From positions 558,001 to 622,000 of the forward strand of contig JAVXUO010000518.1 of the NCBI GenBank assembly GCA_033065855.1: a stretch of DNA of 64,000 nt, in the 5' to 3' direction. Shown one piece after another: positions 10,179-64,000 of the stretch. The notes under the pieces were generated by a model. That model did not search any database. It saw nothing but the letters and a program-made list of their open reading frames with translations, and was not told the origin of the DNA. Numbering within the stretch: position 1 is the stretch's first letter; each line of letters begins with the position of its first letter. Source of the DNA: Escallonia rubra. Taxonomy: Eukaryota > Streptophyta > Magnoliopsida > Escalloniales > Escalloniaceae. The position numbers and the translations under genes were made by a program.

Positions 10179-13100
10179 CTATACAAATATGACCTCAAAC
10201 TTTGCACAAAGGTTGTTCTCTACGTGATTCCTGAAATCAGCATCATCTTTGAAACTAAACGTATACAATGCTTGCCTCTGTGTCTTGCCAAGGGGATATA
10301 TTCTGTACACTTTAAGCTCAGAACCTCCTCTTATGCTTTCAGGTCTTTCCTGTTTCCAGACGGGTACATGTTTCAGAGAGTTGAACTTCAATAGCACAGC
10401 AGATTTGAAGGCCTCCAGCGTCAAAGTCCCCGACCTGCCCAGATAAGAGTCGTAAATGAGAAACTTAGGCATTCAAGTGTCAGAGTGGGAACGCTTAATA
10501 AGGATGGATTTTACGCTACACCCTGTACTTAGGGGTCAGTTGCACCCAGCACCCCGTGGTTTCAATTTTGGCACCCAGCACCAAAATTTTGAAAATATTG
10601 GTATCCGGTACCAATTGACGGTCAAAATGCCTTTTGACCACACGTCTGTTAGTTTTTAAGGGGTAAAATGGTCAGTTCGGTTACTGTGTCCAAGATGGCA
10701 CCATGTGGCATCTAGATGGCATCCTACGTGTCTCATATTTATATACCTCTCCAACAGATTCTGCATATACTCTCTCTCTACACAAAAAGAGATATAATTC
10801 TCTGTATTGCTCCTTTCTCTGCATTCCCTACCTCCACCTCTATCTTTTGTGCATATTGTTATTCAACTACAGGAACAACATTGCTCCTTTCTCTCTGTGT
10901 GTTTTCAATGTGCGTGATATGGAGAGAGGTTTTCAACCGATCAGCGCCGGTTTTGCCGCCGACATCGATCCTTTTATCAGCGGCATGAACTCCACCATTC
11001 CCTTTCTATTCCTTGCTAACTCTAACTCATCAGTACAATACTCTACAAACTTCACCGGAATTCACACACCAAGCCCTGTTGACGGCAGATCTGATGCCGT
11101 GTGCCCTCTAGTGCAATAATCTCGTGGCGAATCAGTTTCACACATTGTTACACTTCCCAAATCCCCGATTCTCCCACTTCATAAAACCCCAATCCTCCCA
11201 CTCCCAAAATCATCAAACCTGCACCGCCCAAACCCATCAAAAACCCATCAATCCTTCACTCAGTCAATCAACTGCAATCCCGCAATTAGTCAGCCACAAT
11301 CCCACACCCTACAAAGCGACAAGATGCCTTCAAAGCCCAATCTCAATTAAAGCGGAAAGCATTCGGGTAAAGGATCCAGAAAATTTGGTGTTGGTGAAGG
11401 ATTAGAGGGAGAAACAGAGACAGAAATTAAGGGAAAGAGAAGCTTGTTTTTTTGTGTGTAATGGCCGCGTGAGATCAGGAGGTGGTGTGTGTGTGTTTGT
11501 GTTTGCGTGCGTGTGTATGGAAGAAGCTTATATGAGTTGCATTTAAGAGCGAGCGAGAGAGAGAGAGAGGAGCCATTATACGTGTGAGAGAGAGACGGGA
11601 AAGAGATAGAGAGGCTGTGTGTGCATAATTGGTGTTGACTAGAATGACACATAGATTTAATAGCTAAAAAGACACATTTATCCTTAAAAAACTAACAGCC
11701 GTTTAGTCAAAGCCCATTTTGACCGTCAATTGGTACCGGATACCAATATTTTTAAAATTTTGGTGTTGGGTGCCAAAATTGAAACCACAGGGTGCTGGGT
11801 GCAACTGACCCCTAAGTATGGGGTGTAGCGTAAAATTAATCCGCTAAATAACCAGTCTACGTATACAGACTATAGGCGTAAAAAATGTTTCACTTGCCTG
11901 TTGAAACCAAAAAAATACATGCAAACTCGAGCTCATTTGTTGGAAGCATACTAACAAAATAAAACAGAAAGGAGAAGTAAAAATAGAACAGAACAAAGCC
12001 AAAACGTGACCCATGCCCCCCGCCACCCGCCAGGCCAATAATTAGAAGAGAAGAAAAGGGATGAATCGGATTCTTTGGAGGCGACCGCCACGGATGATGT
12101 CCTTTAGGCTCATAGTTTTATCCTACAGACTGCACATCCTAACAACCCAATCACGTGGAACTGGCAAAACAACAGCAAATAGGAAAAAAAAAAGAAACTG
12201 AACACCATAGAAAACAGAATGAAAAAGAAATACAGCTGAAAAAACGACTACATTGATTTCCTTCAAAGCATTTCAAAACCACTCAAACTTGCCAAGAGGA
12301 AATTTAATTTTCTCATCTAAATTTGAGCTGGATAATTGAATAAAATGCTCACTTATATATCAAAGGCAAAGGAGTGTAATATTCCTTGCCGCGGAGTAAA
12401 ATAGTTAACTTGTCTTGCCAGCATCCAGAAAAAAAGGCATGAATACTTTATGTAGTCATGAGGGTAAATGAGATCACCTCAAGAATATAGACTCCATGTC
12501 AAACCTCCCTCTTTCGCGAACATATACATGATAGACAGTTTCTAAGCCTCTGGTGCACTTGCATGGGCGTCTCGGAAGGCTTCTTTCTTCCTTCTCATGA
12601 ATCATTGTTGCCAGGTGAATGCACAGACGGCATGACGAGTGAACTGCTGCCATATCTACAAGGGCCTTGAATGAATCAGAAGGGCCCTCATACTTCCACC
12701 TATAAATAACAACAACAAACTAAGTAAAATAAAATAAAATTCAGAACGTGTTTCAAATTTGAATAGTCAAATAATTGCTTTATTGATGCTAACCTTAACG
12801 ACTGGTTGTATGCGTCGGCATTTTCAGCAAGGTATTTCATTTTCTTGGCAACTGAATCAACATCTTTCGGCTCCCTAATATGTAAAACGGAACCAGGTGA
12901 AGGAGCAAAATCCTGGATATTTGGAGCACCAACCACGACAGGAACAGATCCTACGTAATAGTCATTTAACATTCACAGGAGTGGTGAACTATGGATGTGT
13001 TCGTAAAGCAAACGAAACAAAAGATACAAGTCATGAAATAACGAAGGACATGTAAGAATTCAAAGAGGACATGTAAGCGGGAAAAAAGCCGATGCGCAGT

Positions 13101-16100
13101 AAAGCATATGCAATGCAATAGCGAAGGCCATAAGGTTGTTCAATTTTGATTTGCTCCCCCGCCTTGATTGACGGAGAGAATAAGCGCTGGCGGGATTGAC
13201 AGAGAGGGGGCAGGGATGGCTGTTTTTCTGGGAATAAACTCCGTGGCAAAAAATGAAGTGCAGCTGCCCAGGGATTCAAGTTAAAACTTGGAATGAAAGA
13301 TAATTCAGTAAAGGTTATTCTTTATCTTTCTTTTATTATCGTTCACAATGCAAAACAGAGGAACCTTTATTCAGTTGTTTGGTGAAGATACATGATACAT
13401 GCAGAGGCTAAACGTGCCTGAGCCGGTCCCCAAAAATAGAGTAGAAGTAATAGCTGGAAAGGGATGTAAAGCTAATAGGAGTTTATTCTAATCCAAGAAC
13501 TATTAATCATTGCAATCACGATAGTAGCGCTTAAGGAGAAACATTCTTGAGAATATCGATAAACTCCAAATTTACTTGAAAAAGTTAAATGATCCCTTAC
13601 TTGGGCCTTCTTTGTTGAACAAACCAAGTTCATACTTGTATTCTGACCATTGTCGTATATTCCACCAATAGTTAAGTTTTTAGAATATTTCTGACCTGGT
13701 TCGACATTTGTATTCCTCAAACTGAAGAATAAAATGGAAAAATGCACTTTGGCCCCCTCTACTTTGTCTCTGGAGCGGTTTGGCCCCCTCTTCTTTAAAA
13801 AATTGTACTAAACCTACCTCTACTCCTGGAAAGTGTGCACATTGGAAAGATTCCGTCCAACCTAACCCCGTTCTTGGGCAGAAATTGTTTGGCACCCTTC
13901 AAAAGACCAAGATACCCTTTCTATAACACACAGCACAAAACACCACAGTTGCCCCCCATCACCCACAAAACACCGGCACCCTGCATGCACACAAACACTA
14001 TGCCCCCCCCCCCCCCCCTCTCCCCATCACCTACCACCACGCACGCACACACTGCACGAACACACACACAATCACACTCCAAAAACACACAAACACAGCC
14101 ACATTTTACACACACAGACACACCCACACTGAACACTAACAATCACAGTCACCTGCACAAACACACGTGCACACACACCACACTGAACACACAACCACAT
14201 GTAAGCAGAATGCAAAACACACCCACACATGCTGAACAGACATAAACACACCCCGGCACACACACACACACTGAACATGCACAATGACAATGACTTGCAC
14301 ACAGACACACACACACTATCTGCACCCACACACAGTTACACACACAATCACTGCACGACACACACACTACGGGTCCCCCCCCCCCCTCCACCATCACCTA
14401 CCACCACACAACTGCACGAAGACACACACACACACACACACATAGGGGGGGGGGGGTTAAGAAGAAAAAGGCAAAGGGGGAGTTGCGGGGCGGAGCCGCG
14501 CGGGGGGGTGGGATGGCTAAGGGGAAAAGCTGGGGGAGGGCTGGGAGTTGTAGGGGTGGCATGTTGTGAGTGGGCGTGTTCTCGTGTGGTGGTGAGTTTT
14601 GGGGGATGGGGGGCGGTGTGGTAGAGGGTGAATATGGGGGCGGATGGTAGGGTCGCCGCACCATCGTGTATAGTGCCCATTGTGTGTAGATGGGGTGGTT
14701 GGGGTTAGGATGGGGAGCGGTGGGTTCTTTGTATGTGGGTAGGTATGGGAGAGGGGGGAATCATCCAAGTCAGAATGATTTCGCTTGAAAATTTTGGGTA
14801 TAGAGAGGAGTAGTTATGACATTTTAACGGGATCTGTTACAGTCCCTCGAATGTGCACAATTTCCAAGAGTAGACATAGGTTAAGTACAAGTTCTTAAAG
14901 AAGAGGGAACCAAACCTCTCTCGAGACAAAGCAAAGGGGGCCAAAGTGAATTTACCCTGGATAAAATTGAGGGTGGCTAAATCCACACCCTTTTTTGCCA
15001 AAAGTTGCTCTAGTGACTTTCTTTAACCCTTTAGTGACCAAGTAGTGTGGACTTAGCAGAAGAGGGTATGGGTTTAGCCCCACCCTAAAAATTGCGATGA
15101 CAATCTTCACATCCCCATCAATCAGCTTTGGCAGCCACCATAACCTATGTTATATGGGCTCGTTACGAGTATCCGAATCGGACACGTGTACAACATTTCG
15201 AAAACCTAAGACATGGGGACACAGGCAAACTATTCTTATCTCTTGTTATTTTATAGTTATTCCTTAGTTAACATGGTGTCTTATGTGGTGCATATTGTCT
15301 TACTTTAAAACTTTTATCATCTGAAAGCAATAACAATCTAAAAGAAACACTATAAATAGTGTTCTTGGTGGCATATCCTATGATATGTGTCAAACACATA
15401 TCCCATACCAATATCCAAGTGTCAAGTGTCGAGTGTCCAACACGGGTACTTCACTCATTTTGAAGAGTTCATGTAACATAGACTATGACAACCAAAATCT
15501 TGTTTACTTTGTGCTGGAGGATTTTTCATTGGGGTGGGGGGAGAAAATTACTGCTCCCTCCGTCCCAAAAAAATTGATCATATTTCCTTTTTGGATTGTC
15601 CCAAAAAAATTGATCACTTTCCGAATTAAGAAAGATTTTATAGGTGTTTTTTCATGTTACCCTTTTTCACTTTTTTATTTTATTTCTCACCTACTTTAAT
15701 CCTCCACCAACCCATTTTCTCTCTCCAAGTCCACTTTCTTCGTCCCCCTCTCTCTCTTGGAGTAGAATGGGGAACTCATAAAATATGACTCAGCGTGCAA
15801 GTCAAACATGATCAATTAATTTAGGAAGAAGGGAGTACATGATGTCAAAGAAAACTAAACACTCACTCAGATAAATCTGGGATTGAAACAATTACGAGGT
15901 AATAGGATAATGAATAAATGGAAATGAAAGTTTATACCAGCAACAAGAGATTGGAAAAATTTCTCGGTGACATAATCTTCCTCATTGGAGTTCTCAAAAG
16001 CCAGACTAAACTTGTAACGTTTCAGAGCTTCAACTTTCTCCACTGCAAAATAATTTGGACTTAGCTCATTAGAAGATGTTAAGTTATGTGCCATGAGAAA

Positions 16101-63840: not shown

Positions 63841-64000
63841 ATGTTAGGGAAGTTGGCGAGAAGAGCAGCCACATCAAGTTCAGATTTAAGTTCAGTTCCA
63901 TGGCGGAGCAGCCTAATCACGTTGTCGCCACTTCTCCAGGCAAAACGACAACTCTGCTTGGGCATACTTCCCGACGGCGTCGACCGTAACTCCGAATCAT
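63841..64000 (+). CDS. MCCB: Methylcrotonoyl-CoA carboxylase beta subunit, mitochondrial (N-terminus; cut by window end)
   Basis: The ATG at 63841 opens 53 codons up to the window edge. MLGKLARRAATSSSDLSSVP is a basic, Ser-rich mitochondrial presequence. The following CLGILPDGVDRNSES matches the conserved start of plant MCCB (FCVGILPDGVDRNSEAF in Arabidopsis, from memory). The full enzyme carboxylates 3-methylcrotonyl-CoA in mitochondrial leucine breakdown with the biotinylated MCCA subunit. The rest of the gene lies beyond the window. The upstream interval is shared with the divergent DJ-1 gene. Confidence 0.88.
   Translation, partial: MLGKLARRAATSSSDLSSVPWRSSLITLSPLLQAKRQLCLGILPDGVDRNSES

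What the first reader, a model, noticed from the sequence alone, without database searches (positions are those of the whole stretch)
10179..64000. Gene order unites two Arabidopsis neighbourhoods: FUT with COR28-DUF1685-PPR-ABF-DJ1-MCCB
The order COR28-like, DUF1685, EMB2758-like PPR, ABF3/4-type bZIP, double DJ-1 and MCCB is the order I recall for At4g33980-At4g34030. The fucosyltransferase beside this block is, in Arabidopsis, next to ABF4 (FUT11, chromosome 3) and ABF1 (FUT12, chromosome 1), but not next to ABF3. This window therefore looks like an unfractionated ancestral block from which the Arabidopsis copies were sorted after genome duplications. It could help decide orthology within ABF1/3/4, FUT11/12, COR27/28 and DJ1B/C.
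Basis: partly seen in the sequence, partly recalled or inferred. Interest (0 to 1): 0.72.

Follow-up and report, generated by a model that had tools for sequence, protein, structure and literature searches.

The report
Conserved plant gene block, ordinary synteny
This stretch of a flowering-plant genome keeps together, in one run, neighbouring genes that in Arabidopsis appear to be spread over several chromosome segments after ancient genome doublings; this is a clear but ordinary example of how duplicated plant genomes lose genes.

Summary
The gene order is real: FUT, COR27/28-like, DUF1685, PPR-DYW, ABF, double DJ-1 and MCCB (first exon; the rest lies outside). Fetched flanks (contig 508-558 and 622-722 kb) add a P450 that I read as CYP707A and a nitrite reductase on the FUT side; TRX, NYN, SPARK kinase, PLC-like, PUB25/26-like, ZHOUPI-like and MBR-like genes on the other. 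By printed locus numbers these interleave Arabidopsis chr3 (CYP707A4-FUT11-ABF4-PUB25), chr1 (FUT12-ABF1-ZOU-PUB26) and chr4 (COR28-ABF3-DJ1C-MCCB-MBR2); a chr2 segment is mostly recalled. Rice has ABF, FUT and CYP707A within LOC_Os08g36790-36860, so the FUT-ABF link probably predates the monocot-eudicot split. The plant's own genome holds a second, thinner block (C2143: CYP707A, COR27/28-like, ABF; same order and orientation). So "unfractionated ancestral block" overstates it: this is the fuller of at least two copies. Several gene names rest on recalled motifs. Ordinary, well-explained synteny.

The parts
10182..23373 (-). FUT: core alpha-1,3-fucosyltransferase, 7 exons (about 22912-23373, 21846-22013, 19330-19617, 15936-16046, 12790-12963, 12462-12704, 10182-10451), appears intact
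   Evidence: own-genome search with the spliced model; PDB 9s6a, 297 of 412 columns identical; PF00852 on exon 4. Residues at exon joints are approximate
646..2079 (-). truncated tandem copy of FUT (exons 5-7 only)
28682..31363 (-). COR27/28-like gene, 3 exons (31217-31363, 29164-29361, 28682-29032)
   Evidence: frames; motif WxDxKHxLYLxxxEASFV (recalled) and the C2143 paralogue
36408..36881 (-). DUF1685 gene, first exon
   Evidence: PF07939, E 1.7e-24; 4 loci in the genome
42174..44654 (-). PPR-E-DYW protein, 826 aa, EMB2758-like by position only
   Evidence: Pfam PPR, E motif, DYW; next best own-genome match 42% among 55 scored candidates
52704..56023 (+). ABF-type bZIP (exon 1 52704-53789, exon 2 54814-54891, last exon about 55928-56023 ending LRRTLTGPW)
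   Evidence: peptides as printed for ABF4 and ABF1/3/4
57621..62403 (-). double DJ-1 protein with N-terminal extension (DJ1C position)
   Evidence: PF01965 pieces, PDB DJ-1 matches
63841..64000 (+). MCCB first exon; gene continues to contig 625883
   Evidence: frame; PF01039 in the later exons, methylcrotonoyl-CoA carboxylase beta chains in PDB
3691..14757 (.). second unit of a tandem duplication; first unit lies at contig 552358-561679 (window about -5642 to 3679)
   Evidence: blastn, 92-97% identity in most pieces, 79-83% in two pieces near the right end

Best explanation
The window lies in one copy of an old gene block (CYP707A - FUT - COR27/28 - DUF1685 - PPR - ABF - DJ-1 - MCCB - kinase - PLC-like - PUB - bHLH - MBR). 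Whole-genome duplications copied the block, and each copy then lost genes (fractionation). In this plant one copy (this contig) kept most genes and another (C2143) kept CYP707A, COR27/28-like and ABF. In Arabidopsis the same genes ended up on several complementary segments. Shown: gene content and order, the own-genome paralogous block, the interleaving of printed Arabidopsis loci, and the rice ABF-FUT-CYP707A cluster. Inferred: duplication plus loss as the cause, and that chr1/chr3 and chr4/chr2 are pairs of the last (alpha) duplication. Not settled: whether chr1/3 and chr4 parted at beta or at gamma. No function of the block as a unit is needed.
For: Gene order. Flanks: P450, NiR, TRX, NYN-LOTUS, SPARK and kinase, U-box/ARM, DDE. 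Printed loci: FUT11/12, ABF1-4, PUB25/26, MBR1/2, DJ1C and MCCB, ZOU, COR28, CYP707A4. Order agrees for 4 of 4 printed chr3 loci and 5 of 5 printed chr4 loci. Own paralogous block C2143: the best CYP707A paralogue (66%), the only COR27/28-like paralogue found (E 5.6e-4 genome-wide; exon match E 5e-9) and the best ABF paralogue, same order and orientation. Rice chr8 trio, rice chr9 pair OsbZIP72 Os09g0456200 and OsABA8ox3 Os09g0457100, grape chr18 pair ABF2 VIT_18s0001g10450 and CYP707A VIT_18s0001g10500.
Against: chr1 order differs by one swap (ZOU before PUB26 there, after PUB here). The best ABF tree puts ABF3 outside and ABF1/4 nearer to ABF2 and C2143 than to the window gene, with low support (SH-aLRT/UFBoot 74.4/20 and 78.3/23). 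Rice ZOU homologues lie on chr4 and chr2, not chr8, so the whole block is not shown to be pan-angiosperm. Three of four own-genome searches with flank genes (PUB, SPARK kinase, NYN) gave no hit on C2143, so the paralogy there rests on three genes (C2143 is only 275 kb, and one search scored 100 of 149 candidates). One paper (PMC10873597) prints ABF3 as AT3G19290 and ABF4 as AT3G19280; I take it as an error. CYP707A, ZOU, PUB25/26, MBR, PLC-like and COR27/28 are named from recalled motifs plus domain hits where there were any; the PDB's best match for the P450 was CYP90B1, and the PLC-like and MBR-like ORFs had no Pfam hit.
Confidence: 0.86

Rival explanations
1. The Arabidopsis chr1/chr3 and chr4 segments come from different copies of the older gamma triplication, so FUT and the COR28-MCCB group were separated before the rosid radiation, and the window is orthologous to only one of them. 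(This concerns the date, not the process, of the best explanation; odds raised from 0.30 to 0.35 on rereading the tree.)
For: The best ABF tree does not group ABF3 with ABF1/4; a second block exists in this genome (C2143), and grape has CYP707A loci on both chr18 and chr3.
Against: The nodes concerned have low support (74.4/20 and 78.3/23); only C2143 with recalled ABF2 (99.1/64) and ABF1 with ABF4 (100/92) are firmer.
Confidence: 0.35
2. FUT arrived beside this block by a transposition or translocation special to this lineage; the resemblance to FUT11-ABF4 is coincidence.
For: The FUT area is locally active: tandem duplication, a 1.3 kb inverted-repeat element, FUT exon-7 fragments elsewhere.
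Against: Rice has ABF, FUT and CYP707A together; chr3-type genes flank the chr4-type genes on both sides of the contig.
Confidence: 0.03
3. The contig is a misassembly joining two unrelated regions.
For: 3222 contigs; some contigs carry identical matches and may be duplicated haplotypes (C2455/C2456).
Against: No N in the window; a single join cannot interleave the two gene sets on both sides.
Confidence: 0.02

Closest known systems
Arabidopsis chr3 segment At3g19270-At3g19380 (CYP707A4, FUT11, ABF4, PUB25)
   Same: same four genes in the same order (loci in print)
   Different: no COR28, DJ-1, MCCB or MBR homologue there, by recall
Arabidopsis chr1 segment At1g49710-At1g49780 (FUT12, ABF1, ZOU, PUB26)
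   Same: same genes
   Different: ZOU and PUB26 swapped relative to this contig
Arabidopsis chr4 segment At4g33980-At4g34040 (COR28, ABF3, DJ1C, MCCB, MBR2)
   Same: same five genes in the same order
   Different: no FUT, CYP707A or PUB25/26 there, by their printed loci
Rice chr8 TRAB1-OsFucT-OsABA8ox2 cluster (LOC_Os08g36790, 36840, 36860)
   Same: ABF, FUT and CYP707A in the same order
   Different: COR27/28, PPR, DJ-1 and MCCB were not checked in rice; ZOU homologues are on other chromosomes
Own paralogous block on contig C2143
   Same: CYP707A, COR27/28-like, ABF in the same order and orientation
   Different: no FUT, DUF1685, DJ-1 or MCCB hit there, and no PPR hit at E 1e-60 among 55 scored of 1066 candidates

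Membership tests
Syntenic (WGD-derived) block | three or more homologous pairs collinear with conserved orientation | tested here: met
   C1870 vs C2143: CYP707A, COR27/28-like, ABF
Syntenic (WGD-derived) block | collinearity with Arabidopsis beyond the anchor genes | tested here: met
   printed locus numbers for chr1, chr3, chr4; homology of the contig genes partly by recalled motifs
Syntenic (WGD-derived) block | Ks values fitting a known duplication | not tested
   no Arabidopsis coding sequences on hand
Unfractionated ancestral block | single copy in its own genome, no duplicated counterpart | tested here: not met
   C2143 block
Ancestral FUT-ABF linkage | present in an outgroup to eudicots | tested here: met
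   rice locus numbers in print
Ancestral FUT-ABF linkage | present in Amborella and grape | not testable with these tools
   the genome search holds only prokaryotes and the window's own genome; for grape only ABF and CYP707A loci were found in print
Core alpha-1,3-fucosyltransferase (GT10) | whole catalytic part alignable with a solved 'Glycoprotein 3-alpha-L-fucosyltransferase A' | tested here: met
   PDB 9s6a, residues 119-528, 297 of 412 columns identical
ABF1/3/4 orthologue | tree position at the base of ABF1/3/4 | tested here: inconclusive
   recalled Arabidopsis sequences; best topology differs, low support
EMB2758 orthologue | best match among Arabidopsis PPR-DYW proteins | not testable with these tools
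   only domains shown

The most novel reading that the evidence does not exclude
The ABF - FUT - CYP707A neighbourhood (an ABA-responsive transcription factor near the ABA-degrading enzyme) has stayed together in rice, Arabidopsis chr3 and this plant because the genes share long-range regulation, not by chance: a conserved ABA feedback neighbourhood of angiosperms.
Probability: 0.08. Interest if true: 0.55.

Novelty: new member of a known kind. Interest (0 to 1): 0.3.

Why it matters
It is a clean, checkable example of complementary gene loss after genome doubling, and gives positional evidence that FUT11/12, ABF1/3/4, CYP707A4, COR28, DJ1C, MCCB, PUB25/26 and MBR2 sat in one ancestral neighbourhood. 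The wider point worth a look is that an ABA transcription factor, an ABA hydroxylase and the N-glycan fucosyltransferase are neighbours in both rice and eudicots. One plant-to-Arabidopsis comparison of this sort is routine, so general interest is modest.

Tried and rejected
A first literature query for ABF4, FUT11 and synteny found 77 papers; in the 20 listed, FUT11 occurs in none. Queries for the At2g155xx and At4g339xx-340xx loci found 2 papers and 1 paper, so At4g33985, At4g33990, At1g49730/At3g19300, At1g49740/At3g19310, At2g15560, At2g15570, At2g15590/15610 and At2g15620 remain recalled. tRNA and Rfam scans of the window were empty. FUT fragments on C1323 and C2840 and an ABF fragment on C2117 were checked as possible further blocks and rejected: they are short decayed pieces. 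The PUB, SPARK-kinase and NYN searches gave paralogues on contigs other than C2143, so they add nothing to that block. The ABF tree was meant to decide beta against gamma and did not. Apart I did not search whether this linkage is already described in print.
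Full report
What is there. The window is part of a 915 kb contig (C1870, bases 558001-622000) of a 566 Mb genome in 3222 contigs. The genes are plant-type genes with introns. From the left: a truncated tandem FUT copy, a MADS-type and a GDSL-type gene, then the full FUT gene (minus), a COR27/28-like gene (minus), DUF1685 (minus), a PPR-E-DYW gene (minus), ABF (plus), a double DJ-1 gene (minus) and the start of MCCB (plus). FUT residues 119-528 align with PDB 9s6a, 297 of 412 columns identical. 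The own-genome search with the FUT protein gave 13 exon-level matches: 10 on C1870 (7 exons plus 3 of the truncated copy), 2 decayed exon-7 fragments (C1323, C2840) and 1 distant PF00852 gene on C825. So it found no second whole core-type FUT.

Flanks. I fetched 50 kb to the left and 100 kb to the right; after filters for complexity and overlap, 90 ORFs of at least 100 aa were listed. Twenty ORFs, 13 from the flanks and 7 from the window, were scanned with Pfam. Left: a P450 (PF00067) that I name CYP707A from recalled motifs (the PDB's best match is CYP90B1), and ferredoxin-nitrite reductase (PDB 2akj and 3b0g). Right: thioredoxin, NYN with LOTUS, subtilase, SPARK plus kinase, U-box with PUB ARM repeats, a bHLH whose ACT-like match is just under the cut-off, and a DDE-type gene. 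The PLC-like ORF and the MBR-like ORF had no Pfam hit; their names, and the names ZHOUPI and PUB25/26, are recalled.

Comparison with Arabidopsis by printed locus numbers (passages of papers, not whole texts). chr3: CYP707A4 At3g19270 (PMC10302763), FUT11 At3g19280 (PMC5225481), ABF4 At3g19290 (PMC2978106), PUB25 At3g19380 (PMC11371131). chr1: FUT12 At1g49710, ABF1 At1g49720, ZOU At1g49770 (PMC5835929), PUB26 At1g49780. PMC5225481 prints At3g19280 and At1g49710 as the two alpha-1,3-FucT genes; that they are FUT11 and FUT12 is recalled. chr4: COR28 At4g33980 (PMC10315267), ABF3 At4g34000, DJ1C At4g34020 and MCCB At4g34030 (PMC6359015), MBR2 At4g34040 (PMC5467580). The contig order is CYP707A, NiR, FUT, COR27/28, DUF1685, PPR, ABF, DJ-1, MCCB, TRX, NYN, SBT, SPARK kinase, PLC-like, PUB, ZOU, MBR. 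Printed chr3 loci agree in order 4 of 4, chr4 5 of 5; on chr1 ZOU and PUB26 are swapped. A chr2 segment (MBR1 At2g15530 in print; NYN At2g15560, TRX m3 At2g15570, DUF1685 At2g15590/15610 and NIR1 At2g15620 recalled) would be collinear in reverse. If it holds, one contig here answers to four Arabidopsis segments, as expected from two rounds of duplication after gamma. One paper (PMC10873597) gives conflicting ABF3 and ABF4 numbers.

Outgroups. Rice: TRAB1 LOC_Os08g36790 (PMC7689938), OsFucT Os08g36840, described there as single copy (PMC5979348), OsABA8ox2 LOC_Os08g36860 (PMC8953764). So ABF, FUT and CYP707A lie within about eight locus numbers. Rice chr9 has OsbZIP72 Os09g0456200 and OsABA8ox3 Os09g0457100 (PMC7268104). 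Grape: ABF2 VIT_18s0001g10450 and CYP707A VIT_18s0001g10500 on chr18, and CYP707A VIT_03s0063g00380 on chr3 (PMC6371445). I did not find the grape FUT locus. Rice ZOU homologues are on chr4 and chr2.

Own genome. The best ABF paralogue is on C2143 at 78-79 kb. The only COR27/28-like paralogue found is on C2143 at 113 kb (weak genome-wide, E 5.6e-4; exon matches E 5e-9 and 5e-7). This suggested a duplicated block and predicted a CYP707A further along; the best CYP707A paralogue (66%) is indeed on C2143 at 137 kb. Order and relative orientation match C1870. In the 50 kb of C2143 that I read there (70-120 kb), ORF comparison with the extended contig gave 11 matches; ABF and COR27/28 are the gene matches, the rest are their antisense shadows or short repeat-like pieces, apart from the last ABF exon. 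The searches gave no FUT, DUF1685, DJ-1 or MCCB match on C2143, and no PPR match at E 1e-60 among the 55 candidates scored of 1066. PUB, SPARK-kinase and NYN searches gave nothing there.

Tree. Eight ABF-type proteins (4 from this genome, of which 2 served as outgroup, and 4 Arabidopsis from memory) gave ABF1+ABF4 (100/92) and C2143+ABF2 (99.1/64). The best tree joins these two pairs (78.3/23), then the window gene (74.4/20), with ABF3 outside them.

Verdict. Duplication followed by complementary gene loss is by far the best account. The word unfractionated should be dropped, and the date of the split left open. It is a known kind of thing.

Noticed in passing
window 1-3679 and 3691-14757; contig 552358-572757: Tandem duplication of about 10 kb (92-97% identical in most aligned pieces, 79-83% in two near the right end) carrying a MADS-type gene, a GDSL-type gene and FUT exons 5-7; one FUT copy is truncated.
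   Followed up: partly
window 10502-11842: Element of about 1.3 kb with 166-nt inverted ends (90% complementary) in the last FUT intron of the second copy; the stretch is missing from the first copy.
   Followed up: no
window 30098-30607: Two identical 255-bp tandem copies in the first intron of the COR27/28-like gene.
   Followed up: no
window 28682-29361 against C2143:113127-113706: The window COR27/28-like protein departs from motifs that the C2143 copy keeps (NPCLCHLR against NPWIRHFR), which may mean relaxed constraint (the family motif is recalled).
   Followed up: partly
C1323:256446-256802 and C2840:83247-83453: Two decayed FUT exon-7 fragments, about 75% identical in DNA to the window, both beginning at the same point near window 10484.
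   Followed up: partly
C2117:30442-30684: Short ABF fragment with stops; 152 bp at 86% DNA identity to the window ABF.
   Followed up: partly
window 8374-9354: The GDSL-type ORF reads FGDG where the family usually has FGDS at the catalytic serine (motif recalled), so it may be inactive.
   Followed up: no
window 57860-58078 and 60520-60726: Both DJ-1 domains keep a cysteine in the nucleophile elbow (AICAAP, AICSSP); by recall Arabidopsis DJ1C is unusual here, so this may bear on DJ1B/C history.
   Followed up: no
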